Below are positions 1,603 through 30,767 of a stretch of 64,000 nucleotides of DNA, piece after piece (position 1 is the first letter of the stretch; every line of letters begins with the position of its first letter). Source of the DNA: Nitrospira defluvii (GTDB taxonomy: Bacteria; Nitrospirota; Nitrospiria; Nitrospirales; Nitrospiraceae); contig FP929003.1 of assembly GCA_000196815.1 (NCBI GenBank), positions 2,875,501 to 2,939,500 on the forward strand, given 5' to 3'. Position numbers and translations under genes: made by a program. The notes beneath the pieces are model-generated. The model made no database searches, was not told the origin of the DNA, and worked only from the letters and a program-made list of their open reading frames with translations.

Positions 1603-1696
1603 CTCTTGGCTCGGACGTTGTGACGCGGCGTCGCGGCGTGACCCAGCCTGCTTGATTTTCAAGACAGTTGCTGCCCCTTAGCGTCTGCCCTCACAG

Positions 1697-2176: not shown

Positions 2177-2184
2177 ATTTGCTC

Positions 2185-2280
2185 GCCCAAACGTTGCGAC
2201 TAAGCGAGCGCCTGCGCGCGCAGCGCGACGGGAACCCTACAGCGTAACTGTTTGGCGCTCCGCTTAAGCCGCGAGTTATA
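2185..2280 (-). other. attC-like recombination site 1
   Basis: On the minus strand this runs from TATAAC, overlapping the stop codon of the 2276-2893 gene, to CGTTTGGGC just before the next gene start. Within it TAAGCGAGCGCC (2201-2212) pairs with GGCGCTCCGCTTA (2254-2266), leaving a single extrahelical base. Folded, bulge-containing stems of this kind are the hallmark of integron attC sites. The outer core boxes match RYYYAAC and GTTRRRY only approximately, so I rate this below site 2. Confidence 0.5.
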
Positions 2281-2893
2281 CTGCCCAGATACCGATGCCG
2301 AACGCTGCAAACTGTTGCTCCCATGCCTTTAGTGCTTCGTTTCCAAGCTCGTACAGATCGCCGAGAGGCGCACCGCTGCCGTCAACGACTGAACCGGTAA
2401 CAACAACCTGTGAGAATCCGCCCCCAGAGGCAATCTGCTTCGGCCCAGTGGCCGTAAACACGATTGCTATTCCCGATCCCGCGCCGGGACCAGCTGACAT
2501 CCTTAGAACACGCTTCACGTTCAGCAGCTTGGGCGATCTCTTAGAGTGACCACCATCCCGCGACGGATAACCATGCTTGTCGTTGTTGGAGAGATCAATA
2601 ATCATCTGTAGCGCCGCGCAACCGGCGATTGTTCTTTCAATATCTTTTTGATCTAGTCCATTCTTTCCAGCCCATCGGCGAAGATGATCTCGGAGGTTCG
2701 CGATGTTGTGGATCAGCGTATGCGCCAAGTTAGAGATCTGAGGCTCCGTAAGGCCATCAAGAAAATCCTGGTAGAGGCCGAACTGCTTCTCGTCAGCAAT
2801 AATCTTCGGTGGGAACTTGCTCAGGTCGCCTTCCACGGCGGCGTCAATGGCCGCGTAACAGCGATGAAGCCTATCAAGCAGCTCATCTTTCAC
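2276..2893 (-). CDS. Hypothetical protein, probable integron cassette gene
   Basis: A 205-residue soluble protein begins at a GTG (2891-2893) preceded by AGGTGA about eight bases upstream. The first 120 residues look helical (DRLHRCYAAIDAAV, NLAHTLIHNIANLRDHLRRW, CAALQMIIDLSNNDKHG). The second half is Gly-rich with beta-like alternation. The NNDKHG turn after a helical domain is reminiscent of HEPN-like or DUF4145-like proteins, but I cannot claim membership. The gene lies exactly between two attC-like sites (2185-2280 and 2936-3028), with the stop inside one and the start about 43 bases after the core of the other. That is standard cassette geometry. Confidence 0.65.
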   Translation of the reverse strand: MKDELLDRLHRCYAAIDAAVEGDLSKFPPKIIADEKQFGLYQDFLDGLTEPQISNLAHTLIHNIANLRDHLRRWAGKNGLDQKDIERTIAGCAALQMIIDLSNNDKHGYPSRDGGHSKRSPKLLNVKRVLRMSAGPGAGSGIAIVFTATGPKQIASGGGFSQVVVTGSVVDGSGAPLGDLYELGNEALKAWEQQFAAFGIGIWAV

Positions 2894-5999: not shown

Positions 6000-8258
6000 A
6001 TGGCCAACATCAGCATCCATGGACGCGTCATCGATGAGCGGGGAGCCGGCATCGCCGGCTTGACCGTTCGCGCGCTCGACTTCGATCCGGTTTTTAGCGA
6101 AGACGATGTGCTGGGCGTCGGCAAGACGGAAGGCGACGGCACCTTTCTCATTTCCTACTCGCCGGACGCCTACCGCACCTGGAAGGTCGATCGGAATCCC
6201 GACCTCGTCGCCCAGATCTTCGGCCCCATCCACGCGGACCCGGCGCTCTTCGGCACCCGCCTCCTGCACGAAACCAAGGAAGCGAAAGATGTCACCGACT
6301 CGAACCACGAGGTCGGCACCATCACCATCCACCGCAACAACATCGAGGGCTGGCTCGTCACCCATACGACCTTGAACCCCGCAGTCGGAGAGCCCGTCGC
6401 GCTCTACCACCACAACCGCATCACGCACCTGATCGACGGGGCCAAGATGTTCCCCGAGGTGACCAGTGCCGCCGAAGGGGCCACCGAATCCATCAACCTG
6501 ATGACGCTCTTTTTCGACGTCGACAACGGCTTTCTCACCAAATTCAAAAGCAGCTTCGACCCGCTCAATCCTCCCGCCACCGGATGCAAGCAGGCGGCGG
6601 AGACCACACTCGAAGAGGTACTCAAGAACAAGGGCGGAAAGCCGGTGAACGTCCTGGTCACGAACCTGCCGCTGTCTGCGGAGGACACCGTGACCGAGGT
6701 GGCGGAATTTTTCGCACAGACACCGGGCGTGCGCACCAACGCCTATAACAAGGGATTCGCCCTGCTGCATGCCAAGGCCATCGTGGTGGATGGGGACCAC
6801 GCCATCCTCATGGGATCGCCGCTCAAACAGTACTACTTCAGCGATTCACGTCACGCCATCCGCGACGCGCGCCACAAGGGCTCGCTCATGCACGACGTCA
6901 ACACCGATCTCAAGGGCCCGGCGGTGTCACACATCGAGAAGACATTCGCGAGCATCTGGAATGCCACCGGCAAACCCATGCTGATTCCTCCACCGAAAAC
7001 CTTTCCCGACCTGCCCGTCACGCCGGACGGAGACGTGACCTCGGTGCAGGTCCTGCGTACACTGCCGGGCGGTTCGATCAAGCGCGTCAATCCCAGCGAC
7101 GAGGACCTGCCCTACGGTGAAACCGGCATCCTCGAAGCCTACGAGCGCGCCATCGCCAACGCGCAACGCTACATCTATATCGAGAACCAGTACTTCACGT
7201 CGCCCGAGATCGTCGATGCGCTCATCGCGAGGATGAAGGATCTGACCAAGCCGCGCCTGCAGATCATCCTGGTCCTGAACCTGCGGCCCGACCTGCCGGG
7301 GTACCCGGATCGCCAGATCGACAACGTCAACCAGCTCCGCCTCGCCGCGAAAACAGGAGGCCATCACCTGGGCGTCTACACGCTCTGGAGCCGATCGGAG
7401 AAAGCAGGCAGCGGCGGCGCGGGGAATCCGCGGCGCTACGACGTGATGCCGGTGTACGTCCACAGCAAATTGGCCATCATCGACGACGTATGGGCTACCG
7501 TAGGAAGCGCGAACCTCGACGGCACCTCCCTCAACTACCACGAGATCGGCCTGATCGTGGGCGGCGCTCTCCTCGACCGGCTCATCGACAAGGCGAAGCT
7601 CACGAACGATCCCGGCAAGTTTCTCTGGGAGTTGTTTTGGTATCTCTTTTTCTTCGTCTTCAAACAGATACTTTTCGATCTCAAGACGTTGGTCATCCTG
7701 CTCTTCGTCGCCTACAAACTGATTTTCGACTTCAAGGAAACGCTGGAGACCATCAGGGAGACGCTCGGCGACGTGGCGGACATTCCTCAACTCGTCAGGG
7801 ATATGTATACCCGCACGGCCCGGCACGCCGTCCCAAGCCGCTCACGTCAGCCGTCGCGCAGCGTGGAACTCAACCTGGTGATGTACAGCGGCATCGCCGG
7901 CCTGCCGGAAAACGGCGTCGTCCGATCTCTACGCGAAGCGCTCTGGCAAGAACACCTCGGGCTCGCCTCGCTGCCGGACAACCTCAAGACCATGCCGGCG
8001 GAACCTTCCCCCATGACCTGGGTCGCCGAATGGGAACACGCCGCCGCACACCATGTGGATGCGATCAAGAACGAACAGGCGCCGCCGGCCGACCATGCGC
8101 CGCACCTGCTGCCTTGGAAGCCGGAGACCGACCCGAAGGAATATTTGGTCGCCCTCAAGATTCGCACCTCAAGCCTGCGCAGCAAGGCGCAGAAGTTCGA
8201 TTTCGGCACCTGCAAGGTCGACGATAAGAAAAGCCTGCTCCCATGGCCGATCATCTAG
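6000..8258 (+). CDS. Phospholipase D-like protein with two HKD motifs
   Basis: The 752-residue protein opens with a transthyretin/carboxypeptidase-regulatory-like beta domain (residues 1-100, starting with ISIHGRVIDERG). Two phospholipase D catalytic motifs follow. HKD1 has H257, K259 and D264 (HAKAIVVD) and HKD2 has H488, K490 and D495 (HSKLAIID) with the usual downstream GSANLDG. Both are intact, so phosphodiesterase or phosphatidyltransferase activity on lipids or nucleic acid is plausible. A very hydrophobic stretch around residues 545-585, rich in Phe, Leu and Val, probably anchors or inserts into membrane. There is no N-terminal signal peptide. The gene overlaps the next one by 16 bases, implying coupled expression. 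Substrate is unknown. Confidence 0.85.
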   Translation: MANISIHGRVIDERGAGIAGLTVRALDFDPVFSEDDVLGVGKTEGDGTFLISYSPDAYRTWKVDRNPDLVAQIFGPIHADPALFGTRLLHETKEAKDVTDSNHEVGTITIHRNNIEGWLVTHTTLNPAVGEPVALYHHNRITHLIDGAKMFPEVTSAAEGATESINLMTLFFDVDNGFLTKFKSSFDPLNPPATGCKQAAETTLEEVLKNKGGKPVNVLVTNLPLSAEDTVTEVAEFFAQTPGVRTNAYNKGFALLHAKAIVVDGDHAILMGSPLKQYYFSDSRHAIRDARHKGSLMHDVNTDLKGPAVSHIEKTFASIWNATGKPMLIPPPKTFPDLPVTPDGDVTSVQVLRTLPGGSIKRVNPSDEDLPYGETGILEAYERAIANAQRYIYIENQYFTSPEIVDALIARMKDLTKPRLQIILVLNLRPDLPGYPDRQIDNVNQLRLAAKTGGHHLGVYTLWSRSEKAGSGGAGNPRRYDVMPVYVHSKLAIIDDVWATVGSANLDGTSLNYHEIGLIVGGALLDRLIDKAKLTNDPGKFLWELFWYLFFFVFKQILFDLKTLVILLFVAYKLIFDFKETLETIRETLGDVADIPQLVRDMYTRTARHAVPSRSRQPSRSVELNLVMYSGIAGLPENGVVRSLREALWQEHLGLASLPDNLKTMPAEPSPMTWVAEWEHAAAHHVDAIKNEQAPPADHAPHLLPWKPETDPKEYLVALKIRTSSLRSKAQKFDFGTCKVDDKKSLLPWPII

Positions 8259-11200
8259 TCCAGAACGCCACCGCAGGGATCGGGCGGCTCCTGTCGTACC
8301 TCGACGTCGTTCACGGCGATATCGAGGAGGCGCGCGCGTTTCTGAAACTACTGGGATGGGACCTGCCGCCCGGTCTCGACGACATCGGTCTGGCCGCCCT
8401 CGATCTCGGTGATTTCCTCACGAAGCTCGATGCGGTCATCGGCGCCTCCGACGCCGAATGGAACGACGAGGTGACCATGGCGGGCCGCATCGTCGACCTT
8501 GCCTTCGCCATCGAAGCGCTCGTCGCTCGGATTCACGATCTGGCTCACACCCTGCCCGCCAGACTGGCATCTTTCGGCGACTACGTGGACCGGACGCAGA
8601 TCCACAAGGAACTTCCCAGACGGCTGTTCGACTTCCTCGTGGCCAATTACCTGGCGCAGGCTTCGCCGCTCGCTTATGCCGTCCTCCACCTGATGAACAT
8701 CATCGACTATCCCTACTACGCCGCCGATCCGGCGACGTTTCAGGTGGAACACGTGCGCGCCACGGTGCACTATCATCTGTTCAAAGTGCTGGTCACGGAG
8801 CCGAACCGACTGTTCACCGAGGCCTATGGCTGGGATACACCGGACTTCCAGTCCACCCTCTTTCTCAACCGGGTCAGCCAGCTCTTCCAGACGCTCGGGC
8901 TACGTAGTCGCATCCAGCCGTTGAGTCCTCAGGCGGAAGAAGCCTGGGTGGGACGTACCGGAGCGGGTGTCGATCCGCCGTCGCAGTTGATCACCTTTTT
9001 ATATGAAGAGCGCGGCACGGCCTTCGGCGTACGACTTGGACTCTCCCTCTTCGGCGCAGCCCCCACGTCGGCAGGCGCGAACGATGCCGGCCTCGGCCTC
9101 GCGCCTCTGATCCAAGGCCGGGCGGAAGGGGCGGTGCCGTTTCACCGATTGGAAGACACACGCATCGAATGGTCCGGCAACGTGGAGGTGCTCAAGCGGC
9201 TCGCGGTGATTCTGCGACCCAACCGGGACCTCACCCTTCGCAAGGGAGCGGGACTCGGCGATGCCATCAACGGCCGCCTCACGTTGGGACTGCGGCATGG
9301 TCAACCGACCGGCGAGCCGCACCCGCTGGTGCGCCTGCCCGGTGGGTCGGCCCTGAGGTATCAGCAGTTCGCGGTCGCGGGCGGCATCGACGCCGCCTCG
9401 GCGACCAGCCCCGAGACATTCCTGGAGTTGGCGCTTCTGGGTCTTCGGTTCGACTTGTCGCTCGCCGAAGCCGATGGGTTCGTCCAGGGAACGCTGACTC
9501 GCGATCGCGTCGAAGCGCCGTTCGACCTCACACTCCGTTGGAGCAGCAAGACAGGACTCTCGCTCTCCGGCAGCGGCGGGCTCCACGTCTTTCTCACGTT
9601 GCAAAAATCCATCGGCCCATTACGGCTAGACGGCGTACACATCGGGATCGACGTGGGCGAGGAGGGCATCGAAACCGAAACCAGCCTGAACGGGCGCCTG
9701 ACACTCGGGCCGGTCACCGCTACCGTCGAGCGGCTCGGCATGACCGTCAACATCTCGTTCGGCGAAGGGAACCTCGGCCTCTTCGGGCTTTCACCAGGCT
9801 TCAAGCCACCGACAGGCCTGGGGCTGGCGATTGCCGCGCCGGGTGTGGTGGGCGGCGGGTATGTGGGCTTCGATCCCCAGCGGGCCGAATACAGCGGCAT
9901 GCTGCAGTTGGAGCTAGCCGACCGCATCGCGATTAAAGCCATTGGCCTGCTCACCACGCGCCTGCCCGACGGCAGCAAGGGCTACTCGCTGTTGATCCTG
10001 CTCACCGCCGAAGGGTTCACGCCCATTCCACTAGGCCTGGGCTTCACCCTCACCGGCATCGGTGGGCTGCTCGGCCTGCGTCGCACCGTCTCCACGTCCA
10101 CGCTCCGCGAGGGCCTCAAGACCGGCACGCTGAATGCCATTCTGTTCCCGGTGGATCCCCTGCGGAACGCGCCGCAACTGCTGAGCGATCTGCGCCGCGT
10201 GTTTCCCCCCACCGCCGGCCGCCATGTTTTTGGCCCCATGGTCCAATTGCGTTGGGGCACACCCACCCTGCTGACCCTTGAACTCGCCCTCCTGCTCGAA
10301 TTGCCGTCGCCCGTCCGGGTGATCGTCTTAGGCCGCCTCCAAGTCCTCTTGCCCAACCAGACCCACCCGCTCGTGCAGATCCGCATGGACGCCTTGGGGG
10401 TGCTCGATGTGTCGGCCGGCACCGTCTCGTTGGATGCCACGCTCTACGATTCCCGCATTCTGCAATTCACCCTGACCGGCGACATGGCGCTCCGGGCCGG
10501 CTGGGGGAGCCAGCCGCAGTTTATCCTGGCCATCGGCGGGTTCCATCCGCGGTTTGCCGCCCCGCCGGGGTTACCGGCGCTCAAACGCTTGGCCTTGAGT
10601 CTCGCCGACGGCGACACGTTGCAGCTGCGTTGCGCCGCCTATCTGGCCGTCACCTCCAATACGGTGCAGTTCGGCGCCCGGGTCGATCTCCATGCCGCGG
10701 GCGGCGGGTTCAGCTTCGACGGCATGCTGGGGTTCGATGCATTGATTCAGTTGGCGCCCCTGGCGTTTCAAGTGGACATCGGCGCCGCCTTGGCGCTGCG
10801 CTATCGCGGCCGGTTGCTGATGGGCATCTCCTTCAAGGGGAGCCTGGCGGGGCCCACGCCCTGGGAGGTGCAGGGCAAGGCCACGATCAAGATCCTGTTC
10901 TTCAAGGTCTCGGTGTCCTTCGAGCGGCAGTTCGGCACGAAGACCCCGCCGCCCCTGCCGGCGGCGGTGGATGTGGTGGCGCAGGTCGCGGCCGCCCTGG
11001 CCGACCGGCGCAATTGGAGCGGGACCCTGCCGCGGCGGGAGCCGCCGGTGGTGACGGTCCGTGATGGGGGGTCCACGACAGCCGGTCCGCTCCGGGTGCA
11101 TCCGCTGGCGGAGCTGACGGTGCGGGAGCGGATCGCGCCGCTCAACCGGCCGATCACGAAGCTGGGGACGGCGCCGCTGGTGGGCGGGCCGACGACGCTC

Positions 11201-11563
11201 ACGGTGACCGCGACGGGCAGCGGCCCGACGGCCCTCCCTTGGCGGACGACGCCGGTGCAGGAGCCCTTTGCCCTGGCGCAATTCGAAGATCTGCGGGAGG
11301 ACGAGCAGTTGGCGCGGCCTTCGTTCGAGGCGCTGGCGGCGGGGCTGACTTTTGCGCTGGACGAGGTGGCGGCGGAAGAGGACCCCGGACTGACGGCGCC
11401 GATTGCCTACGAGACCCTGCTGATCGATCCGACGCGGCCGCCCGAGCGGCCGAAACCCGGCTATGTGCTCTCGGCGGCGGTGCTGGCCCGGGTCGCGCCC
11501 TTCGGTGCCGCCGGGCAAGCCGCGATTCGCACACGCCGGCGCACTTCGACAGTTGTCGCCTGA
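8243..11563 (+). CDS. DUF6603-like giant protein, copy A
   Basis: The 1106-residue protein starts inside the end of the phospholipase D-like gene. Residues 1 to about 240 are helical and resemble the same region of copy B (LFDFLVANYLAQ against LFELLLTDYLAA; EAYGWDTPDF against KVYGWGSQEL). The rest is a long series of Gly-rich amphipathic beta strands with recurring LGLG and LTLGPV patterns, suggesting an extended beta-helix, beta-solenoid or barrel-like fold. Residues 519-1106 are encoded by DNA nearly identical to copy B. I assign DUF6603 from recall of the family's strand pattern, not a search. There is no signal peptide and no catalytic motif I can see. It may be a structural or carrier component. 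Confidence 0.7.
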   Translation: MADHLVQNATAGIGRLLSYLDVVHGDIEEARAFLKLLGWDLPPGLDDIGLAALDLGDFLTKLDAVIGASDAEWNDEVTMAGRIVDLAFAIEALVARIHDLAHTLPARLASFGDYVDRTQIHKELPRRLFDFLVANYLAQASPLAYAVLHLMNIIDYPYYAADPATFQVEHVRATVHYHLFKVLVTEPNRLFTEAYGWDTPDFQSTLFLNRVSQLFQTLGLRSRIQPLSPQAEEAWVGRTGAGVDPPSQLITFLYEERGTAFGVRLGLSLFGAAPTSAGANDAGLGLAPLIQGRAEGAVPFHRLEDTRIEWSGNVEVLKRLAVILRPNRDLTLRKGAGLGDAINGRLTLGLRHGQPTGEPHPLVRLPGGSALRYQQFAVAGGIDAASATSPETFLELALLGLRFDLSLAEADGFVQGTLTRDRVEAPFDLTLRWSSKTGLSLSGSGGLHVFLTLQKSIGPLRLDGVHIGIDVGEEGIETETSLNGRLTLGPVTATVERLGMTVNISFGEGNLGLFGLSPGFKPPTGLGLAIAAPGVVGGGYVGFDPQRAEYSGMLQLELADRIAIKAIGLLTTRLPDGSKGYSLLILLTAEGFTPIPLGLGFTLTGIGGLLGLRRTVSTSTLREGLKTGTLNAILFPVDPLRNAPQLLSDLRRVFPPTAGRHVFGPMVQLRWGTPTLLTLELALLLELPSPVRVIVLGRLQVLLPNQTHPLVQIRMDALGVLDVSAGTVSLDATLYDSRILQFTLTGDMALRAGWGSQPQFILAIGGFHPRFAAPPGLPALKRLALSLADGDTLQLRCAAYLAVTSNTVQFGARVDLHAAGGGFSFDGMLGFDALIQLAPLAFQVDIGAALALRYRGRLLMGISFKGSLAGPTPWEVQGKATIKILFFKVSVSFERQFGTKTPPPLPAAVDVVAQVAAALADRRNWSGTLPRREPPVVTVRDGGSTTAGPLRVHPLAELTVRERIAPLNRPITKLGTAPLVGGPTTLTVTATGSGPTALPWRTTPVQEPFALAQFEDLREDEQLARPSFEALAAGLTFALDEVAAEEDPGLTAPIAYETLLIDPTRPPERPKPGYVLSAAVLARVAPFGAAGQAAIRTRRRTSTVVA

Positions 11564-11845: not shown

Positions 11846-14419
11846 ATGCCGATCACCGGGATCAAATGGAAAACCAATCGGGAGTACGACATCCACCTGT
11901 TGCGTGGAAGAACCTTACCGGCCCTCCTCGATGCCGTCGATGTTCAGCTCCCTGACGGTACCACTCAAGATGCCGCGGCCTACCTGGCTGCCAATGCCGA
12001 CGTCACCATCAACTTCCAACCGTCGTTCAGAAACGTGCTCGACCTCACCGTCGCGCCGCCGACCTGCTCCGGCTTCGGGATCACGATCAACAATAACAAC
12101 GGAGAAACCCGGGTGCCTGCGCCTCCGAGCCCGGCGACAACCATTCATAATTTTCTCCTGCACGCCACGGCCGAAGATTCGAGTGACGACAAGGAATACC
12201 GCATCAGCGTCCGGATTCACCTGCATAACCGCGTGACCTCCGCCTGGTTGACGCCTTCGATCCTGACTCTTCGGCCGGACGGTCCGACCTTGCCGCAAAC
12301 CACCTTCAGGCGTTTCAGTGTGCGCGCGCAATTCGATGACAACACCGTCGGTGACCTCACCAATCAGTCCGGACTGACCTGGGGCCCCCTCGCCAACGTA
12401 GAACCATCAGGTCGATTGATCGTTTCGGTCGGGAATAGCCCGAGTGACCCGGCCGTGGAGATCACGGCCACGCTGCCGGCCGACCTACGGGATCCTGCGA
12501 ACCCCGCGCCACCGGAGATCGTGGCTCGCGGCCATATCCGGTTCGCAGCGGATTGGGCCTCGGAAAGCACCATTCGAACCGAGACCGTACAGATCCAGGA
12601 GACCTGGCCGGGCACGATCAACCCGGAACTCGTCCCTAATTTCCTGTTCCTGTGCGACGGCTACACCACCGACGACAAACCGCAGTTCGAATCCCAAATC
12701 AGATGCCTGCTGGGGCTCATGAAGAAAAGCCGGCTGACGCGCCCTTTCGATTTACTCTCCACATCAATGAATTATTTTCAGGCCTTCGTGCCCTCCAGCC
12801 ATCATGGCATTTCGGTGCTCTGCGAGGTTTTCCCGACACAGCGGAACAATGGGGACGTGCAAACCAATAGCGACGACACCGTGCACCTCTATTGCGTTCC
12901 CGATCCGGAGGATCCTTCCGCAGGGGAACGTTGGGATCTCCGCAACCTGCTATTCCGACTCGGGCTTCCCGTTCCCGGACAAGGGCTCGATCGGCCGATC
13001 AAGGAAATCCGTGATTACTGGGACAGCATCCTCGACGACGTGCCGCATGACAAAATCTCGAATGCGACGGTGCGTGAGTGGCAAATGTTATCCCGACGGA
13101 CATTCCTCGAAGAAGCCGATTCGACGTTCGGATTGGCCTACGGCGACTACCCCAACGTCACGAACGAAAGTAACAATAGCGAAATCGGGTTTCATTCGCG
13201 ACGAATGACGCGCGAGCAGTTGGACCCGATCTTGAACCGCCTGCACGACACCAATGGCAATCCCATAGGCCAGTTGTGGGCTGAACGGTCTGACGGCACA
13301 CAACCCAACAGCTACCCGTTGATTTTTCTCTTCTCTTCGCTCAGATGGGACCGTGGGGTGAACTACCGTCGCAGGTACATCGCCATGAATGTCGAGGGGC
13401 GGGAAACAATCCCGGCGAGACCCGTCTCGGGGAAACCGACGTATCGTATCGACCTCACCGGCCGCATCACCAACAAGATCTCCCATGGGCGCCTGATCCG
13501 CGGGTGTCATGAGGTGGCACATTCGTTCGGCCTGGGCGATGAGTACAGCGAAAAGGGAACCTTGCCTCAGAGCCGCGAGATCGATCAGTTTTACGGGAAT
13601 CTGCAGAAACACAGCGACCTGCTCGACTCGTTCGACGACATCGATGGCGATCTCATCAAATGGCGCTGGCATCGCATCCGCAAAGCCACCGTCGTCATGG
13701 GCGCTATCGGCCAAGCCACACCGGGCGTCTTCCGCATTCCGATTCCCTTGGGGCAGAGCCTGCAATTCAAACAAGGCAACACGGTGCTCCTGCGCGCTCG
13801 ACGCTACCCCAATCCCCTCCCGCGCAATCCGGACATCAGCGAGCACCTCCACATCGTCGGACTCGCAGACCCCGGCGGCGTGTTCGACCTTTCAAAACCG
13901 GAAGGCCCGGACAATCCTCTGGGCGCAGCCATCCTGGTCTCGCCCAAGGACGGGCACTCATTCACCGCAGCCGATGCCGCTCGATTCGGGGCCGGCTGCG
14001 TCCTCTACCTGCCCGTCGAAGCCAGCGAATCGGCCCGCTCGGAAGACTACCCCTTCGCCGAGTTGATCGCCCTGAACGTCAAGGATCACATCACGGACCG
14101 GGGCCGCGCGCTCAACCAGGACCCCGACAGCGACGAGATCTGCGTGCCGGACAAAAACGACGTGCAAAAGCCGAAGAAGCTCGACATCGATTTTCCCCGC
14201 TGCTTCAAACATAAGAACCGGATCGTCGGCCTGTTTACGGGCGGCAAAACGTTCCACTGCGGAATTTATCACCCCACGGGCAACTGCATCATGCGTAACT
14301 CGGACAGTGACGGCAAAGAGTTCTGCCCCGTGTGCCGTTACCTGCTGGTTGATATCATCGATCCCCACCAGCATTTTTCCATCGACTTGGACTACGGCGA
14401 GATTTATCCGCAGAAATGA
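11846..14419 (+). CDS. M64-like zinc metallopeptidase, large
   Basis: The 857-residue protein has an N-terminal half of beta-rich, Ig-like or jelly-roll-like segments (residues 1-260). A domain beginning FLFLCDGYTTDD (about residue 265) follows. The zinc-binding signature HEVAHSFGLGDEY has H555, E556 and H559 with D565 and E566, fitting the HExxHxxGLxDEY pattern of IgA-peptidase-like M64 enzymes. A late Cys-rich motif, CIMRNSDSDGKEFCPVC, also matches that family. There is no signal peptide, unusual for M64 enzymes, which are mostly secreted. The stop overlaps the next start as ATGA, so it is translationally coupled to DUF6603-like copy B. Confidence 0.75.
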   Translation: MPITGIKWKTNREYDIHLLRGRTLPALLDAVDVQLPDGTTQDAAAYLAANADVTINFQPSFRNVLDLTVAPPTCSGFGITINNNNGETRVPAPPSPATTIHNFLLHATAEDSSDDKEYRISVRIHLHNRVTSAWLTPSILTLRPDGPTLPQTTFRRFSVRAQFDDNTVGDLTNQSGLTWGPLANVEPSGRLIVSVGNSPSDPAVEITATLPADLRDPANPAPPEIVARGHIRFAADWASESTIRTETVQIQETWPGTINPELVPNFLFLCDGYTTDDKPQFESQIRCLLGLMKKSRLTRPFDLLSTSMNYFQAFVPSSHHGISVLCEVFPTQRNNGDVQTNSDDTVHLYCVPDPEDPSAGERWDLRNLLFRLGLPVPGQGLDRPIKEIRDYWDSILDDVPHDKISNATVREWQMLSRRTFLEEADSTFGLAYGDYPNVTNESNNSEIGFHSRRMTREQLDPILNRLHDTNGNPIGQLWAERSDGTQPNSYPLIFLFSSLRWDRGVNYRRRYIAMNVEGRETIPARPVSGKPTYRIDLTGRITNKISHGRLIRGCHEVAHSFGLGDEYSEKGTLPQSREIDQFYGNLQKHSDLLDSFDDIDGDLIKWRWHRIRKATVVMGAIGQATPGVFRIPIPLGQSLQFKQGNTVLLRARRYPNPLPRNPDISEHLHIVGLADPGGVFDLSKPEGPDNPLGAAILVSPKDGHSFTAADAARFGAGCVLYLPVEASESARSEDYPFAELIALNVKDHITDRGRALNQDPDSDEICVPDKNDVQKPKKLDIDFPRCFKHKNRIVGLFTGGKTFHCGIYHPTGNCIMRNSDSDGKEFCPVCRYLLVDIIDPHQHFSIDLDYGEIYPQK

Positions 14420-17400
14420 GCAACGCGGCCGGCACATTCGAACAGGTTGCACGCGCCATGATCGACGCGATGGCGCCGTTGCGCCGCGCCCTGAGCAGTC
14501 GCGATGCGTTCCGATCCTTCATGCTCCGCCTCGGCTGGGAAACCATCTCCGTTCCTCCGGCCTACACCGCACTGGGCACAACCATCAGCGAAGCCATGCA
14601 GGCAGTGGAGGCGCTTCGCGACGATCCGACAGCGGACGAGGTTCTGTCCCTGCTCAGGAAAGCGCAAGCCGCCTATCTCGCGATTCAACGGATCGATCAG
14701 GCGCCGGCGGGTGTCGATGCGGCCGCGTTTCTCAGTCAGATCGGCGAGCAGCTGTTCGAACTCCTGCTCACAGACTATCTCGCAGCCCACCAACCGGCTC
14801 TTTTCAATTGGCTCTCGATCCTCAATGTGATCGAGACGGTGGACATCCCTGCCACAGAACATCAGCGCGGCCATATCCGCACGCACTTCCATTGGGCCAT
14901 GATCCCGGCGATCGTTCGCGATCCCTTGTCCCTACCACAGAAGGTGTACGGCTGGGGCTCGCAGGAGTTGAAGTTTTCATTGCTACTCCAGCATCTCAGC
15001 GAACTGTTCTTCGCCTACGGTTTCCCGGTCTACCTCAGCAGAACAGAGACTTCACTGACGCGCGGGTATGACGATGGCGAGCGGAACCTCGAAGAACACT
15101 CCGCGTGGCTCAAGATCCCGTTCTACTACATTACGATCGCCGACCGGGAACTCGAGGCGGCCATCAGTGTGGTGGAACTCAAAGGCAGCGACACCTCCTT
15201 GCCCGGCCTCGCCATCCAACCACACATTCCCAATGAATTCCCGCTTACCCTGCGCCTGGCGCCGACCATCGATCTGCGGGTGCGCGCCGGCACCAATGCC
15301 GCAACACAACTCGGCATCGTGCTCCGCCCCGGCGAAGCGTCGATCAAATACCCCTTCCAACCAGGGACGACGCCTCCCTCGGCCGGCATCGGCATCGGGT
15401 TCGATTTCAAGCCCGCGTCGCCGACCCTGCTGTTCGGGGCACCGAACGCCACGCGTCTTGAGTTCCAAGGGGCGTCGGTCGACCTCGGAGCCTCCACAGT
15501 CGATAACGAACTGGATATTCAGCTGGCGGCTCAACTCAAGGGGCTGACCCTTGTCCTTCAGCCAGGCGAGGCCGACTCCTTTCTGCGCAACCTGCTCGGC
15601 GACAGCGAACGCCGGCTGACGATCCCGCTCGGCATTGAATGGACTCGGCGCAACGGGGTGCGCTTCGCAGGGAGCGAGGCATTCGAAACGTTCCTGCCTA
15701 CGAATCTCTCGATCGGCCCCATCACGGTCGAAGGCATTGCGCTGCAACTCTTTGCGCCCACCGACCATTCCGCGGATCTGACCCTGGCGGTCGGGGCACG
15801 GATCTCCGGAAAACTCGGCCCTGTCTCGTTTGCTGTGGAAGGAATGGGGTTCCACCTGCAAACGACCTTCGCCCAGGGCAATGTCGGTCCGTTCGATCTC
15901 GCCCTCGGCTTCAAGCCACCGACAGGCCTGGGGCTGGCGATTGCCGCGCCGAGTGTGGTGGGCGGCGGGTATGTGGGCTTCGATCCCCAGCGGGCCGAAT
16001 ACAGCGGCATGCTGCAGTTGGAGCTAGCCGACCGCATCGCGATTAAAGCCATTGGCCTGCTCACCACGCGCCTGCCCGACGGCAGCAAGGGCTACTCGCT
16101 GTTGATCCTGCTCACCGCCGAAGGGTTCACGCCCATTCCACTAGGCCTGGGCTTCACCCTCACCGGCATCGGCGGCCTGCTCGGCCTGCATCGCACCGTC
16201 TCCACCTCCACGCTCCGCGAGGGCCTCAAGACCGGCACGCTGAATGCCATTCTGTTCCCGGTGGATCCCCTGCGGAACGCGCCGCAACTGCTGAGCGATC
16301 TGCGCCGCGTGTTTCCCCCCACCGCCGGCCGCCATGTTTTTGGCCCCATGGTCCAATTGCGTTGGGGCACACCCACCCTGCTGACCCTTGAACTCGCCCT
16401 CCTGCTCGAATTGCCGTCGCCCGTCCGGGTGATCGTCTTAGGCCGCCTCCAAGTCCTCTTGCCCAACCAGACCCACCCGCTCGTGCAGATCCGCATGGAC
16501 GCCTTGGGGGTGCTCGATGTGTCGGCCGGCACCGTCTCGTTGGATGCCACGCTCTACGATTCCCGCATTCTGCAATTCACCCTGACCGGCGACATGGCGC
16601 TCCGGGCCGGCTGGGGGAGCCAGCCGCAGTTTATCCTGGCCATCGGCGGGTTCCATCCGCGGTTTGCCGCCCCGCCGGGGTTACCGGCGCTCAAACGCTT
16701 GGCCTTGAGTCTCGCCGACGGCGACACGTTGCAGCTGCGTTGCGCCGCCTATCTGGCCGTCACCTCCAATACGGTGCAGTTCGGCGCCCGGGTCGATCTC
16801 CATGCCGCGGGCGGCGGGTTCAGCTTCGACGGCATGCTGGGGTTCGATGCATTGATTCAGTTGGCGCCCCTGGCGTTTCAAGTGGACATCGGCGCCGCCT
16901 TGGCGCTGCGCTATCGCGGCCGGTTGCTGATGGGCATCTCCTTCAAGGGGAGCCTGGCGGGGCCCACGCCCTGGGAGGTGCAGGGCAAGGCCACGATCAA
17001 GATCCTGTTCTTCAAGGTCTCGGTGTCCTTCGAGCGGCAGTTCGGCACGAAGACCCCGCCGCCCCTGCCGGCGGCGGTGGATGTGGTGGCGCAGGTCGCG
17101 GCCGCCCTGGCCGACCGGCGCAATTGGAGCGGGACCCTGCCGCGGCGGGAGCCGCCGGTGGTGACGGTCCGTGATGGGGGGTCCACGACAGCCGGTCCGC
17201 TCCGGGTGCATCCGCTGGCGGAGCTGACGGTGCGGGAGCGGATCGCGCCGCTCAACCGGCCGATCACGAAGCTGGGGACGGCGCCGCTGGTGGGCGGGCC
17301 GACGACGCTCACGGTGACCGCGACGGGCAGCGGCCCGACGGCCCTCCCTTGGCGGACGACGCCGGTGCAGGAGCCCTTTGCCCTGGCGCAATTCGAAGAT

Positions 17401-17673
17401 CTGCGGGAGGACGAGCAGTTGGCGCGGCCTTCGTTCGAGGCGCTGGCGGCGGGGCTGACTTTTGCGCTGGACGAGGTGGCGGCGGAAGAGGACCCCGGAC
17501 TGACGGCGCCGATTGCCTACGAGACCCTGCTGATCGATCCGACGCGGCCGCCCGAGCGGCCGAAACCCGGCTATGTGCTCTCGGCGGCGGTGCTGGCCCG
17601 GGTCGCGCCCTTCGGTGCCGCCGGGCAAGCCGCGATTCGCACAGGCCGGCGCACCTCGACAGTTGTCGCCTGA
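14416..17673 (+). CDS. DUF6603-like giant protein, copy B
   Basis: The 1085-residue protein is a paralogue of the 1106-residue copy A. The first 240 residues are helical, with clear but low similarity to copy A. Residues 240-497 are beta-rich and diverged. Residues 498-1085 are almost identical to copy A residues 519-1106 because of the shared 1772-bp segment. Start is ATG in ATGA overlapping the peptidase stop. It has no signal peptide, membrane helix or catalytic motif. The pattern of variable front and fixed back suggests that the C-terminal part meets a constant partner, whereas the front half sets specificity. That is inference. Confidence 0.7.
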   Translation: MSNAAGTFEQVARAMIDAMAPLRRALSSRDAFRSFMLRLGWETISVPPAYTALGTTISEAMQAVEALRDDPTADEVLSLLRKAQAAYLAIQRIDQAPAGVDAAAFLSQIGEQLFELLLTDYLAAHQPALFNWLSILNVIETVDIPATEHQRGHIRTHFHWAMIPAIVRDPLSLPQKVYGWGSQELKFSLLLQHLSELFFAYGFPVYLSRTETSLTRGYDDGERNLEEHSAWLKIPFYYITIADRELEAAISVVELKGSDTSLPGLAIQPHIPNEFPLTLRLAPTIDLRVRAGTNAATQLGIVLRPGEASIKYPFQPGTTPPSAGIGIGFDFKPASPTLLFGAPNATRLEFQGASVDLGASTVDNELDIQLAAQLKGLTLVLQPGEADSFLRNLLGDSERRLTIPLGIEWTRRNGVRFAGSEAFETFLPTNLSIGPITVEGIALQLFAPTDHSADLTLAVGARISGKLGPVSFAVEGMGFHLQTTFAQGNVGPFDLALGFKPPTGLGLAIAAPSVVGGGYVGFDPQRAEYSGMLQLELADRIAIKAIGLLTTRLPDGSKGYSLLILLTAEGFTPIPLGLGFTLTGIGGLLGLHRTVSTSTLREGLKTGTLNAILFPVDPLRNAPQLLSDLRRVFPPTAGRHVFGPMVQLRWGTPTLLTLELALLLELPSPVRVIVLGRLQVLLPNQTHPLVQIRMDALGVLDVSAGTVSLDATLYDSRILQFTLTGDMALRAGWGSQPQFILAIGGFHPRFAAPPGLPALKRLALSLADGDTLQLRCAAYLAVTSNTVQFGARVDLHAAGGGFSFDGMLGFDALIQLAPLAFQVDIGAALALRYRGRLLMGISFKGSLAGPTPWEVQGKATIKILFFKVSVSFERQFGTKTPPPLPAAVDVVAQVAAALADRRNWSGTLPRREPPVVTVRDGGSTTAGPLRVHPLAELTVRERIAPLNRPITKLGTAPLVGGPTTLTVTATGSGPTALPWRTTPVQEPFALAQFEDLREDEQLARPSFEALAAGLTFALDEVAAEEDPGLTAPIAYETLLIDPTRPPERPKPGYVLSAAVLARVAPFGAAGQAAIRTGRRTSTVVA

Positions 17674-26548: not shown

Positions 26549-28285
26549 ATGGCTTCACAGATCAGACTGGAACTCAGCACCACCAACCCCGATCTGCAGG
26601 ACGGGCTGCAGGCGCGCTTGCACGATCCCCTCTGGCTGTTGGCCCGCCAATGGCAATTCGGTGAATTCAACGGCGCGGACGCCGGGTCCCCTGCTGCCGC
26701 GCAGGTTGTGGTGGATACGACAACATTGAGCCGCTATCAGCCCGGCCCGCAATCGGCGGGCCATCCCGCTCGCCCCTACACACCGGAGGCGCTGGCGCTG
26801 GAAACCCTGGTCGAAAGCGAACCAGTCGGCACCGGCATTCGCCCCAACTGGAAACTCGCCGCCGAAGCCGGCAACCATCTGCTTCGTCTGCTGCAACAGA
26901 ACAACGCCGGACAGACCCGCGCGTTATGGCTGAACAGCGCCTATGTGCTTGCGGAGCCTACGCCGGAACAGGAACGGACCCTCGATGCCGCGAGCCTGCA
27001 ATTCATGCAGGTGATGAGCCGCCGCACGATCGACGGGCTTCGACTCGCGGCACACCTCCGCCCGCTCCAGGCCCGTAACGGCCTGACCGAACTGTTTCAG
27101 GAAACGCCGTTCGAACAGATCGCCACCGCCGACCGTCCCAAGGTGATCGCCGCGCTGACGGCCTGGCTGACATGGGCCGATACGTTCTTTCAACAGACTG
27201 CGCCGCCCGCCGCCTGGATGCCGGAACGTATGGAGTACGCCTTTGCCGTCTCGGGAAAAACTGCGTCGGGGGAAGTTGTCCTGGCTGCGCCGGAATATTT
27301 GGAGGGTCGCCTGGACTGGTTTTCGTTCGTGTCGAGTCCCGGACAGACACTGGGGGCCACTGCAAACGGCTCGTCGGTCAGCACGGCCTTCCTTCCCGCG
27401 CCGGTCACGTTTCGCGGCATGCCCTCCGCCCGCTTCTGGGAATTTGAGGACGGCGCCGTGAACTTCGCCCAGGTGGAAGCCGCGCCGCAGGATCTGGCCA
27501 GACTCCTCCTCGTGAAATTCGCGCTGGAATACAGCAACGACTGGTTCGTGCTTCCATTGGAACTGGCCGTGGGCACGCTGTGCCAGATTCGCGCGCTCGT
27601 CGTCACCAACACGTTCGGCGAACGGATGATGATTCCGCACACGAGCCAGGTGGACGGCGCCAACTCGCCCTGGCGCATGTTCAATCTGACCCGCGATACC
27701 CAACAGTTGTACTTCCTTCCTCCTGTGCTGGGCCCCGGTCTGGAGAGCCCTCCGGTGGAAGAGGTGCTGTTCCTGCGGGATGAAATGGCCAATGTAGCCT
27801 GGGGCGTGGAGAAGATCGTAGAGAGCGCAGCGGGTCGGCCGCTAGACCGCTACGAAGCCTACCAGGAGACGCGCCGACGACTGGAAGAAGCCAGCCCGCC
27901 GCAGACCCCCGAGGGAGACCAGACCCAGCCGCTCCCCTATCGCCTCGGTACCACCGTGCCGGACTACTGGATTCCGCTGCTACCCGTGACGGATGGAACG
28001 TCGCTCAAACTCAAGCGGGGTGCTATTCCCGATTTCAACGCCGGGGAAAGGCCGCGGCTGATCGAGCCGATGGGACGGATACTCGAACCAGGGCGCGAGT
28101 TACTACTGCAAGAAGAAGAGGTGCCGCGCGAAGGAGCCAGGGTCACACGTACCTATCAATACGCCAGATGGATCGACGGCTCGACCCATCTGTGGGTAGG
28201 CCGGCGCAAAGAGCCTGGCCGCGGCGAAGGCTCCAGCGGGCTGCAGTTCGACGTGGCGGAGAAGAGGGAAGAGGGGAATTCGTAA
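26549..28285 (+). CDS. Uncharacterised 578-residue cluster protein
   Basis: The protein opens with SQIRLELSTTNPDLQDGLQ followed by HDPLWLLARQWQFGEF, a striking Trp/Phe-rich start that I associate with a widespread but unnamed family. No signal peptide, transmembrane segment or catalytic residue set is visible. The middle contains DWFSFVSSPGQ and RFWEFEDGAVNF, and the last 150 residues are charged with repeated Glu/Arg pairs. It starts three bases after the 1772-residue gene stops, so the two are almost certainly co-translated. It is the last gene of the cluster: 14 bases later a tRNA-like fragment begins. Confidence 0.7.
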   Translation: MASQIRLELSTTNPDLQDGLQARLHDPLWLLARQWQFGEFNGADAGSPAAAQVVVDTTTLSRYQPGPQSAGHPARPYTPEALALETLVESEPVGTGIRPNWKLAAEAGNHLLRLLQQNNAGQTRALWLNSAYVLAEPTPEQERTLDAASLQFMQVMSRRTIDGLRLAAHLRPLQARNGLTELFQETPFEQIATADRPKVIAALTAWLTWADTFFQQTAPPAAWMPERMEYAFAVSGKTASGEVVLAAPEYLEGRLDWFSFVSSPGQTLGATANGSSVSTAFLPAPVTFRGMPSARFWEFEDGAVNFAQVEAAPQDLARLLLVKFALEYSNDWFVLPLELAVGTLCQIRALVVTNTFGERMMIPHTSQVDGANSPWRMFNLTRDTQQLYFLPPVLGPGLESPPVEEVLFLRDEMANVAWGVEKIVESAAGRPLDRYEAYQETRRRLEEASPPQTPEGDQTQPLPYRLGTTVPDYWIPLLPVTDGTSLKLKRGAIPDFNAGERPRLIEPMGRILEPGRELLLQEEEVPREGARVTRTYQYARWIDGSTHLWVGRRKEPGRGEGSSGLQFDVAEKREEGNS

Positions 28286-28298
28286 GTCTCCGGTGACC

Positions 28299-28340
28299 CT
28301 TAATCAGCGGGCCGTAGGTTCGCCCCCTACACGGCCTCAC
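28299..28340 (+). other. tRNA-Lys-like 3' fragment (possible attachment-site scar)
   Basis: The segment starts CTTAATCAGCGGGC, like the anticodon loop of a tRNA-Lys(CTT). It contains a well-formed T arm: GTAGG (28314-28318), loop TTCGCCC, CCTAC (28326-28330). It ends ACGGCCTCAC, like an acceptor 3' strand followed by a damaged CCA. No matching 5' half is upstream, so it cannot be a functional tRNA. Integrating elements commonly duplicate exactly this 3' portion of a tRNA gene. Confidence 0.55.
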
Positions 28341-28520
28341 AAAATCAACCACTTACAAACCGAAATTTTCTCCCCAGTCGCCGGTGTAGACACCGTGTAA
28401 ACGGATGGGAGTGAATTATTTTTCTGTCATTGTAGCTCGGATCCCTCGCCATCAGGATTTCCCCCTGTCTGAAAGAGCTCTTGCAAAGCTTTTTCACCTC
28501 TGAAAGAATAATACACTTTT

Positions 28521-28547
28521 CTTTCAAAGATAAAAACGCTTTGAAAG
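28521..28547. promoter_or_regulatory. Inverted repeat upstream of fic, candidate operator
   Basis: CTTTCAAAG (28521-28529) and CTTTGAAAG (28539-28547) form a perfect 9-bp inverted repeat with a nine-base spacer. Additional CTGAAAG half-sites lie at about 28469 and 28499. A -10-like TAATAC is at 28509-28514, so a repressor on the repeat would cover the start of transcription. The Fic protein encoded downstream carries a C-terminal winged-helix-like region and could be the regulator. Confidence 0.45.
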
Positions 28548-28574
28548 TCCCCTTACATTCAGGATTCCCACACT

Positions 28575-29729
28575 ATGAATCCAAAAGACTTCCGAGCCGC
28601 AAGCGCAGGTAAAGTCGTCCGGACGCCCATGGGCTATACCGCGTTCATTCCAGCCAAGCTGCCGCCCACGCTTACATACGATGACCGGTTTGTGCTGTCG
28701 CTGTCTCGGGCCGATGCAGCCCTCAGTGAACTCTCAGGATTAGGCCGACATCTCCCTAACCCGCACCTCTTGATCGCCCCCTATGTCCGACGCGAAGCGG
28801 TCTTGTCCTCCCGCATCGAGGGAACGAGAGCCAGCCTATCTGATCTGCTCATAGATGAGATGGAAGAGCCAAGAAAGCGTACTGAAGATCATGACGTTCA
28901 GGAGGTACGGAATTATGTCGCGGCGATGGAACATGGGCTCGAACGCTTACAGAAGCTCCCTCTTTCGCTCAGGCTCGTGCGGGAACTGCACGGGCGACTG
29001 ATGAAGGGAGTACGGGGCGAGCGAGCGACGCCCGGAGAGTTTCGCCGCAGTCAAAACTGGATTGGTCCATCAGGAAGCACCATCGAAACGGCTCCCTATG
29101 TCCCTCCGCCACCGGAATATTTAGACGGTTTGCTGGGAGATTGGGAACGTTTTCTCCACGAGCGGAATACACTCCCCGATCTCATCCAATGCGCCATCAT
29201 GCACGAGCAGTTTGAAGCGATTCACCCGTTTCTGGATGGCAATGGTCGACTGGGAAGACTCTTGATCACCCTCTTTCTCATCGAGCGGGGTCGGTTGCCG
29301 CAACCCCTTCTGTACATATCCTCTTACATCGAAGCCCATCGCCAAGATTACTATGACCTTCTGCAACGCGTGAGAACTCACGGAGACTGGATGAGCTGGC
29401 TTCGCTTCTTCATTGCCGGCGTCACAGAGATTGCTCTTGAAGCCGTGGGACAGGCTGGCCGCCTGATGGATCTTCGTGAAAAATTCCGTGCTCGTCTCCG
29501 CGACAAAGCAAAAGCATTGGCATTGTTGGACGAACTCTTCTTGAACCCCTACATGTCCGTTTCACGGGCTGAGCATGTCCTAAAGGTCTCCAACCCCACC
29601 GCAAGACAGGCCGTGATGCTTCTACAAAAAAAAGGAATGTTAGAAGAAATTACAGGGCGCACGTGGGGAAAACTCTACCTGGCAAGACCCATCATGGAAA
29701 CGATCGAGTTGACGGGGAAAGGCAAATAA
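28575..29729 (+). CDS. Fic family AMP-transferase with N-terminal inhibitory motif
   Basis: The 384-residue protein has the Fic motif HPFLDGNGRLGR starting at H217, which in this family transfers AMP from ATP to a target hydroxyl. Upstream, SSRIEG (residues 78-83) matches the class II inhibitory motif (S/T)xxxE(G/N), whose Glu82 would block ATP binding until released. The C-terminal 60 residues (SNPTARQAVMLLQKKG onward) look like a winged helix, as in Fic proteins that bind DNA. ATG is not preceded by a clear ribosome binding site. The flanks carry tRNA-like fragments and lower-GC DNA, pointing to acquisition by integration. No antitoxin gene is needed because inhibition is built in. Confidence 0.9.
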   Translation: MNPKDFRAASAGKVVRTPMGYTAFIPAKLPPTLTYDDRFVLSLSRADAALSELSGLGRHLPNPHLLIAPYVRREAVLSSRIEGTRASLSDLLIDEMEEPRKRTEDHDVQEVRNYVAAMEHGLERLQKLPLSLRLVRELHGRLMKGVRGERATPGEFRRSQNWIGPSGSTIETAPYVPPPPEYLDGLLGDWERFLHERNTLPDLIQCAIMHEQFEAIHPFLDGNGRLGRLLITLFLIERGRLPQPLLYISSYIEAHRQDYYDLLQRVRTHGDWMSWLRFFIAGVTEIALEAVGQAGRLMDLREKFRARLRDKAKALALLDELFLNPYMSVSRAEHVLKVSNPTARQAVMLLQKKGMLEEITGRTWGKLYLARPIMETIELTGKGK

Positions 29730-30204
29730 GCGCCCTGAGGGGTTGAAGCGCACTCCTCGAAATGGGCTCGGGTTCGTACCGGCCCACTTCTCTTAATCAG
29801 CGGGCTGCGAACGCAGGTTGATGGATGGGCAGAACCCTCTTTAATGTTCGCGACATGACATCACCCTTCCCATCGCGGCCTTTCTTTCCGTAGTTGAATA
29901 TCAACGTTTTTCTGCCGCCTGGGCTGTTTATCGCTCAGTGCTGATAACCTCTTCTATGGCATGATGCTCCGTGCCATCACGAATCCTCGCACGTTCTTGA
30001 GGATTGCTCTTGCTGACTTTGCCGAGGTGGATCTTCGAGAGAACTTTGAATCAGTGGTTGGTATTCTGGGTAGGGTTTTGCCGGGACTCCACATCACCGC
30101 ATCTGTTCTGCCACGGTCTCGCGATAAGTAATGGCCAAAATGTAGCCAGGAAGCGTTGAGGCCCTTGACCAACGACTCTTGACGCTACCCTATTTCTACT
30201 CGCG
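29730..30204. other. Non-coding stretch after fic with tRNA-like debris
   Basis: I see no secure gene in these 475 bases. The first 90 carry two tRNA-like fragments. A short plus-strand frame at 29961-30131 (56 aa, with LADFAEVDLRENFESVVGIL) has no ribosome binding site and stays doubtful. The region reads as decayed mobile-element DNA. Confidence 0.45.
29764..29805 (+). other. Two further tRNA-like fragments downstream of fic
   Basis: 29764-29787 (GGGCTCGGGTTCGTACC then GGCCCAC) looks like a shortened T arm plus acceptor end. 29792-29805 (CTTAATCAGCGGGC) repeats exactly the 14 bases that open the fragment at 28299. The fic gene thus lies between copies of the same tRNA-derived sequence 1.5 kb apart, as expected for an element inserted at a tRNA 3' end. 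Confidence 0.45.
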
Positions 30205-30696
30205 CTACCCCTGCAATCGTCCCCACAGCTTCTCCAGCGTTTTGACGAACGCCTTACATTCCTGCTCGCTCAGTTCTGAAAATAGTTCCGCCACCTGCTC
30301 TTTGTATTCCGTGCAGCGCGGGGAGAGCTGGGTCATGACTTTGTCCGAGAGTTCGATCACGGTGGCCCTGCGATCTGTGGGATGCCGTCTCCGGACGACT
30401 AATCCGTCCTTTTCCAGTGAATCGACGAGTGCCGTGACGTTCGTCGCCGTGACGCCGAGTTCCTTTTTGAGGTCGCTCATGATCCTGGGGCCACGCTCAT
30501 GAATGGAACCGAGAATGCGCAGCCGCTGAGGAGAGAGCCCTTTCTCCACCAACAGCGATTCCGACCAGCGCTGATAGGCCGGAGCAAAGCTCCACAAGAG
30601 TTCAACCAACCGGTGCCGTGGCAACGTCGAGATGCAGGGAGAGACGGATGAGGTCTCCTTAGCTTTGACTCGCGGAGCTGCTTTGGTACGTTTCAT
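30205..30696 (-). CDS. MarR family transcriptional regulator
   Basis: With the start at ATG 30694-30696 the protein has 163 residues. The winged helix-turn-helix is clear: LSPQRLRILGSIHERGPRIM leads into SDLKKELGVTATNVTALVDS as recognition helix, and KDGLVVRRRHPTDRRA forms the wing with the MarR-typical DRR. An upstream ATG at 30738 would add 14 residues, and no ribosome binding site decides between them. The gene is divergent from an RND efflux operon, the usual arrangement for a MarR repressor controlling a pump and itself. The inducer is unknown. Confidence 0.88.
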   Translation of the reverse strand: MKRTKAAPRVKAKETSSVSPCISTLPRHRLVELLWSFAPAYQRWSESLLVEKGLSPQRLRILGSIHERGPRIMSDLKKELGVTATNVTALVDSLEKDGLVVRRRHPTDRRATVIELSDKVMTQLSPRCTEYKEQVAELFSELSEQECKAFVKTLEKLWGRLQG

Positions 30697-30767
30697 CGTT
30701 CGGATACGGTACCTCAAAAAGCGACAACATTCAATCATCAATTATTCATAGCTGCATCATTCATATA

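What the first reader, a model, noticed from the sequence alone, without database searches (positions are those of the whole stretch)
28299..29805. fic gene bracketed by repeated tRNA-Lys-like 3' fragments
CTTAATCAGCGGGC occurs exactly at 28299-28312 and 29792-29805, and the first copy continues into a perfect T arm. A third fragment resembling a T arm and acceptor end is at 29764-29787. No complete tRNA is present. The fic gene lies between, so it was probably carried in by an element using a tRNA-Lys end, with several rounds of insertion.
Basis: partly seen in the sequence, partly recalled or inferred. Interest (0 to 1): 0.5.

Follow-up and report, generated by a model that had tools for sequence, protein, structure and literature searches.

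The report
Mobile fic gene in tRNA-Lys cassette site
A phage-defence-type gene sits in a small insert bounded by tRNA-lysine fragments, and related bacteria carry other single genes in the same spot and in similar tandem arrays, which suggests a gene-cassette system that works from a tRNA-derived site instead of the usual integron site.

Summary
The repeats are real. CTTAATCAGCGGGC occurs three times in the whole genome: twice around fic and once in an intact tRNA-Lys(CTT) 1.1 Mb away. Copy 1 matches the whole 3' part of that tRNA. Relatives show a fic-free site (G004), differently filled sites (G016, G020) and an exact empty/filled pair (G013/G004), all at one hotspot behind a conserved 578-aa gene. 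Right of fic lies a decayed second cassette whose 98-bp end matches a conserved 143-position end (E 2e-14). That end occurs in 52 of 175 family genomes, often in same-strand tandem arrays of small segments, mostly finishing in the tRNA-Lys anticodon core. Cargo is shuffled between sites. One element (G072) joins this end to a tyrosine integrase with matching arm repeats at tRNA-Lys. I read fic as an integrase-less, tRNA-Lys-targeted mini-element beside a fossil cassette of that family. Mobilisation in trans is inferred, and fic's own right end is not the conserved one. tRNA-repeat-delimited additive islands are known; this is a new, integron-like variant.

The parts
26549..28285 (+). Conserved 578-aa gene whose 3' flank is the insertion site (no Pfam or PADLOC family at E 0.001)
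   Evidence: a relative in 24 of 29 genus genomes, own genome included
28294..28355 (+). Copy 1: core CTTAATCAGCGGGC (28299-28312, 13 bases behind the stop codon) plus the rest of the tRNA-Lys(CTT) 3' part and part of its downstream flank; left junction
28383..28404 (+). Arm-like direct repeat GGTGTAGACACCGTGTAAACGG at the place where arm-like repeats lie behind tRNA-Lys in relatives (G005: GGTGTTAATACCGTGTTAGCGG)
   Evidence: resemblance read by eye (17 of 22), no statistic
28575..29729 (+). fic, 384 aa, Fic_N + Fic domains, best PADLOC model SoFic (2.2e-119); open frame intact
29759..29790 (+).
   Evidence: hairpins also lie before the right core of the tRNA-Lys islands of G005 and G015
29790..29805 (+). 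Copy 2: CTCTTAATCAGCGGGC, right junction of the fic segment and left junction of the next one
29806..30057 (+). Decayed cassette 2, related to the cassette in G004 (29854-29949 aligns, score 65 against a maximum of 27 in 500 shuffles)
29960..30057 (+). Decayed copy of the conserved cassette right end, finishing in the core-like ACTTTGAATCAGTGG
   Evidence: model R1 positions 44-141, 49.2 bits, E 2.1e-14
30058..30097 (+). Possible second partial right end (weak, E 0.13)
30205..30741 (-). MarR regulator that starts the MarR/RND-efflux genes on the far side of the hotspot

Best explanation
The locus is an attachment-site hotspot that holds small site-specific inserts. SHOWN: a tRNA-Lys-like core lies 13 bases behind the stop of a conserved gene; fic lies between two direct copies of this core, 1.49 kb apart; a second, decayed insert follows; relatives have the same core with other small inserts or without one; many family members carry a conserved right end closing in the same core, often in tandem; one 11.6-kb element carries that right end together with a tyrosine integrase with matching arm repeats, at tRNA-Lys itself. 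INFERRED: the crossover is inside the anticodon-loop part ACTCTTAATCAG; a tRNA-Lys tyrosine integrase supplied in trans by phage- or satellite-like elements excises and inserts the small segments, which carry a core and an end but no integrase; fic came from a tRNA-Lys-resident element (as in G022) and was inserted at this secondary site. The fic product probably works as a SoFic-type AMPylating defence protein (by family only).
For: Genome-wide uniqueness of the core; tRNA match; core at the same distance behind the gene in several genomes; G013/G004 exact empty/filled pair; G016 and G020 different inserts between the same cores; fic remnant behind intact tRNA-Lys in G022; conserved right end at E 2.1e-14 in the window, a copy not used to build the model, and in 52 of 175 family genomes, 8 of which supplied the model; in 46 loci outside the window 16 further cores on the strand of the sites, 0 on the other strand, 0 of the reversed pattern, about 0.25 expected per strand; same cargo before different downstream DNA and the reverse; integrase, arms and right end joined in G072; 5 of 5 genomes with an integrase frame of 409 codons or more have right ends against 47 of the other 170, p 0.002, and 3 of 3 against 41 of 164, p 0.017, without the 8 model-source genomes.
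Against: fic's own right end is a hairpin, not the conserved right end, and its arm-like repeat resembles another class (GTGTTA, G005), so the integrase linked to the R1 family need not be the one that moved fic. In this genome the integrase peptide had 0 matches, and the other integrase beside its tRNA-Lys is a relic: only about the last 100 residues remain, in pieces with a stop. No genome that differs only in fic was found; G004 and G013 are other species. Of five intact integrases only one lies beside tRNA-Lys within 1.5 kb. The co-occurrence tests ignore phylogeny. No excision, circle or transfer was observed.
Confidence: 0.72

Rival explanations
1. Remnants of ordinary tRNA-Lys islands: full-size elements inserted one after another and then lost most of their DNA by deletion, leaving single cargo genes between att copies. 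No trans mobilisation is needed.
For: Larger tRNA-Lys islands with two cores exist in G005 (about 13 kb, with a 422-codon integrase-like frame behind the tRNA) and G015 (about 7.5 kb, integrase end degraded); relic integrase ends lie at tRNA-Lys in several genomes; the G135 array begins with an integrase relic; G072 has its TauE cargo gene right beside the right end.
Against: Random deletion would not leave cores bounding small segments in many genomes nor the same cargo-plus-end block in front of different downstream DNA.
Confidence: 0.2
2. Homologous or microhomology exchange between tRNA-Lys copies: DNA from a tRNA-Lys locus was copied into this site by general recombination through the 14-base identity.
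For: fic lies behind tRNA-Lys in G022 and behind a tRNA-Lys fragment here, with part of the tRNA's downstream flank included.
Against: 14-16 bases are short for homologous recombination; the exact core boundary in G013/G004 and the constant strand of the cores fit site-specific recombination better.
Confidence: 0.06
3. A true integron or integron-derived array (attC sites, IntI).
For: Tandem arrays of small units with a conserved downstream site and varied cargo.
Against: The site ends in a tRNA anticodon core, and its single strand folds no better than shuffles in 4 of 4 tested. The linked integrase matches phage integrase families. IntI itself was not searched for.
Confidence: 0.02

Closest known systems
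Additive flexible genomic islands with a tRNA as cassette target (Alteromonas, PMC4119200, passages seen; Methylophilaceae fGI-2 with repeats of the end of tRNA-Lys(ctt), PMC10872708, first part of section 13 read)
   Same: Gene sets added at a tRNA, marked by repeated tRNA-Lys pieces, variable between strains, down to very small units
   Different: Here the repeat is the anticodon part, many units share a conserved 143-position right end, an element with a matching integrase is identified, and a second hotspot lies behind a protein gene
tRNA-targeted genomic islands with tyrosine integrase (Islander, PMC4383910, start of abstract in the listing)
   Same: A displaced tRNA fragment marks the far end; the tRNA is intact on the integrase side (G072)
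   Different: The small units here hold no integrase
Integrons and their gene cassettes (as described in PMC4119200 passages)
   Same: Tandem small units, conserved downstream site, shuffled cargo of unrelated functions
   Different: Site is tRNA-derived with paired arm repeats; phage-type integrase; no attC-like fold found
SoFic defence protein (PMC12249575, abstract and outline seen)
   Same: fic matches the PADLOC SoFic model over residues 20-377
   Different: No room for a downstream antitoxin gene inside the segment: about 60 bp between fic and copy 2
Tycheposons (as described in PMC10872708)
   Same: tRNA-bounded, tyrosine recombinase, metabolic cargo
   Different: They are given as 4-200 kb; the units measured here are 0.5-3.9 kb and lack the recombinase

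Membership tests
tRNA-integrating element (tyrosine integrase type) | Direct repeat identical to part of a tRNA gene at both ends | tested here: met
tRNA-integrating element (tyrosine integrase type) | Integrase gene inside the element | tested here: not met
   fic is the only ORF of 70 aa or more kept between the cores; met for the G072 element
tRNA-integrating element (tyrosine integrase type) | Located at the tRNA gene | tested here: not met
   tRNA-Lys is 1.1 Mb away; met for the G022 fic remnant
Conserved-right-end cassette family described here (model R1) | R1 right end before the right core | tested here: not met
   not at fic's own right core; met, decayed, for the neighbouring cassette 2
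Additive flexible genomic island at a tRNA-derived site | Same location in relatives with presence or absence of different gene units | tested here: met
Integron | attC site able to fold as a single strand | tested here: not met
   z 0.03, -0.59, -0.45, 0.93 in the 4 ends tested
Integron | IntI integrase with attI | not tested
   no search for IntI was made; the linked integrases match Phage_integrase and PHROG integrases
SoFic defence protein | Fic domain with SoFic-like whole length | tested here: met
SoFic defence protein | Protection against phage by AMPylation | not testable with these tools
   needs an assay

The most novel reading that the evidence does not exclude
Nitrospiraceae possess an integron-like gene-capture system independent of integrons: small cassettes ending in a conserved attachment site derived from the anticodon arm of tRNA-Lys, collected in tandem at tRNA-Lys and at a decoy tRNA-Lys-like site behind a conserved gene, and moved in trans by the tyrosine integrase of small phage-satellite-like elements. 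The cargo includes defence (Fic), P-II, ferredoxin, metal-binding and hydrolase genes.
Probability: 0.4. Interest if true: 0.8.

Novelty: new variant of a known kind. Interest (0 to 1): 0.62.

Why it matters
If mobilisation in trans holds, single genes, defence genes included, can move between genomes of a major nitrifier lineage without carrying their own recombinase and without integrons. It would explain how additive islands with tRNA repeats can grow, and it gives a searchable sequence signature (R1) for them.

Tried and rejected
Third tRNA fragment at 29764-29787: compared with the 37 loci then held (loci for 30 of the 44 tRNA genes, plus L001-L007); no match above background; explained as a hairpin. 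Integron attC reading: set aside on folding. Viral and phage collections: no exact right end in viral contigs with two patterns, no blastn match in 'phages'. fic homologues elsewhere in the genus: 13 loci from 10 genomes (two overlap others), no core with 2 or fewer mismatches. A DNA search with the G020 right end found it only in G016 and G020 of 29 genomes; the profile found more. Integrases lying against tRNA-His (L261) and tRNA-Glu (L274) were set aside as belonging to those tRNAs. Dropped rows: pairs from one locus whose windows overlap, and pairs under 400 bp, were not counted as shuffling; for two loci of the counted pairs (L259, L263) only 281 and 659 bp of downstream DNA were available. 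Of the 21 segments, two (L267 first, L286) have a decayed right core and were kept; spans in L262 and the outer span in L270 were not counted.

Full report
Observation. They are not chance: the whole 4.3-Mb genome has the 14-mer three times and the reversed pattern none. The third is inside an intact tRNA-Lys(CTT). Copy 1 runs from the anticodon stem to the tRNA 3' end with few changes and shares 11 more bases (TCAACCACTTA) of downstream flank. Copy 2 is 16 bases.

The third fragment. 29764-29787 aligns to none of the loci held above background (14 of 44 tRNA genes were not among them). It is part of a hairpin directly before copy 2. The tRNA-Lys islands of G005 and G015 also have a hairpin before their right core, so I read it as the right end of an element.

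The site. A relative of the upstream 578-aa gene is found in 24 of 29 genus genomes, and of the 157-aa gene beyond the MarR/RND-efflux genes in 27 of 29, own genome included in both. From the 578 stop to the far end of the 157-aa gene it is about 2 to 27 kb in the 18 genomes where I could read it through; in G016 only the end of the 578 gene is left there. A short distance behind the stop (13 bases in G000), G000, G016, G020 and G017 have the core with 0-1 mismatches, G013 and the duplicated gene end of G004 with 2, and G015 a more degenerate form. G010 and G024 have TTGACTCAAAATCAG there, by recall like a tRNA-Leu(CAA) anticodon arm. In the other genomes printed I saw no core at that place.

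Empty and filled versions. G013 and G004 match on both sides (578-gene end on the left; on the right a region with a 160-175-aa gene, hemerythrin-like by eye, not searched), and G004 has about 1.14 kb more, exactly inside the core. G016 has a 456-aa gene and G020 a 102-aa gene (Imm32, just over the cut-off) between two cores. In G000 the DNA right of copy 2 is a decayed relative of the G004 insert: score 65 against a maximum of 27 in 500 shuffles; the alignment starts 48 bases right of copy 2. So G004 is a fic-free version of the G000 junction, in another species. G022 has sequence 72% identical to window 28294-28657, including the start of fic, directly behind its intact tRNA-Lys; its fic is broken (no match at E 1e-20).

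The conserved right end. The G004, G016 and G020 inserts end alike. A pattern scan of genome contigs gave 10 stretches: 9 in records titled Nitrospira, Nitrospiraceae or Nitrospirae and 1 titled Actinomycetota; several have contig lengths equal to G genomes used here, so they are not all independent. An alignment of 10 ends gave model R1, sequence only. In the window it hits 29960-30057 at E 2.1e-14, with one weak further hit, E 0.13; this copy did not help build the model. In the family it hits 52 of 175 genomes at E 0.001 or better, in 8 of 22 genera, up to 13 per genome, under stricter filters; 8 of the 52 supplied the model. In the 52 sources read there are 57 hits at E 0.05 or better. Most finish in ACTCTTAATCAGCGGG or ACTCTTCATCAGCGGG or close to it; some are decayed, and one in L262 ends in a different, tRNA-Thr-like core.

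Arrays. Leaving the window out, 46 loci (471 kb) have 42 cores with up to 2 mismatches at R1 sites, 16 more on the same strand, 0 on the other strand and 0 of the reversed pattern; about 0.25 per strand are expected with uniform bases. Core-to-core segments run from 466 to 3885 bp. In the 21 segments examined most hold one or two longer ORFs. Families found: Lcl_C, Imm32, DUF1264, carbonic anhydrase, 5'-nucleotidase, sulfatase, MerR with YnfA, P-II, ferredoxin, small metal-binding protein (twice), GDSL lipase, Fic, and FRG below its cut-off; others have none. Of ten proteins tested, two matched PADLOC: a second SoFic-like Fic (5e-40) and PDC-S15.

Shuffling. Up to 1.5 kb before each right end were compared with each other, and up to 1 kb after it. 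Eight pairs from different genomes share at least 400 bp before the end. In 7 of 8 the DNA after the core has no match at that sensitivity (for example G135/G148, 92.5% over 1150 bp, where only 281 bp of downstream DNA existed on one side; G149/G150, 90.9% over 560 bp); G104/G129 match on both sides. The reverse, same downstream DNA and different cargo, is seen among G136, G144 and G148.

The recombinase. Behind tRNA-Lys some genomes have relic integrase 3' ends with TTGGTGCCAA-type repeats, the motif of the right end. A peptide from such an end matched 14 of 175 genomes. Five have an open frame of 409-451 codons, and all five have right ends, against 47 of the other 170 (p 0.002); any match, 9 of 14 against 43 of 161 (p 0.006). 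Two of the five (G072, G136) supplied model sequences; without the 8 model-source genomes it is 3 of 3 against 41 of 164 (p 0.017). Phylogeny is not corrected. All five integrases carry the paired repeat at their 3' end. In G072 the integrase lies against an intact tRNA-Lys; the same contig has primase-like and terminase-like genes, a TauE gene beside R1, then the core and the tRNA-Lys 3' end, about 11.6 kb in all. It is the one element found that links integrase, right end and tRNA-Lys. In the other four no tRNA was found within 1.5 kb of the match.

What this says about fic. Its 1.49-kb segment has no integrase. Its left end is a tRNA-Lys 3' end followed by a repeat like the one at the end of the G005 integrase-like frame (422 codons behind tRNA-Lys); its right end is a hairpin plus core, not R1. 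So fic is best read as an integrase-less insert of the tRNA-Lys class, perhaps served by another integrase than the R1 family, at a site also used by R1 cassettes. Its neighbour on the right is a fossil R1 cassette. This genome's own tRNA-Lys integrase is a relic. Movement in trans, the crossover point and the order of events are inferences.

Known or new. Additive islands with a tRNA as target for gene cassettes, also with repeated tRNA-Lys(ctt) pieces, are in print (PMC4119200, passages; PMC10872708, section 13 first part). Five searches of the held library with terms for Nitrospira, islands, tRNA, integrase, trans action and cassettes listed no paper whose title or shown abstract start describes this system; I opened only PMC10872708, PMC4119200 and PMC12249575 (abstract and outline). 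I therefore call it a new variant of a known kind.

Noticed in passing
window 8243-11563 and 14416-17673: Two large proteins of unknown function (1106 and 1085 aa) left of the hotspot are 63% identical overall, and their C-terminal halves look nearly identical by eye, so recent duplication or gene conversion.
   Followed up: partly
L160:8881-9222 and L157:12093-12257: In G004 and G028 the 3' end of the 578-aa gene is duplicated (aa 465-578 and 522-576) beside the full gene, as if inserts had carried a copy of the gene end.
   Followed up: partly
L262 about 5791; L267 about 7012; before the right ends in L213 and L219: A second core-like sequence, ATTCGTAAACCGCAG or close to it (tRNA-Thr(CGT)-like, name by recall), appears at or before right ends, so a sister class may use another tRNA.
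   Followed up: no
L152 and L171, just behind the 578-aa gene: G010 and G024 have TTGACTCAAAATCAG, by recall like a tRNA-Leu(CAA) anticodon arm, where others have the Lys core.
   Followed up: no
L213 and L294: Two other Fic-type genes (200 aa, by motif only; 214 aa, Pfam and PADLOC) lie before the same kind of right end, so Fic genes recur as cargo.
   Followed up: partly
L316 with L291 (G072 contig C199): The 11.6-kb element has integrase, primase-like and terminase-like genes; whether it is a phage satellite or a reduced prophage was not settled.
   Followed up: partly
L211 ORFs 92-472 and 1653-2543 (- strand): Two ORFs in G016 on either side of a right end contain the same peptide MRSTHPT, hinting at a further repeat; unexplained.
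   Followed up: no
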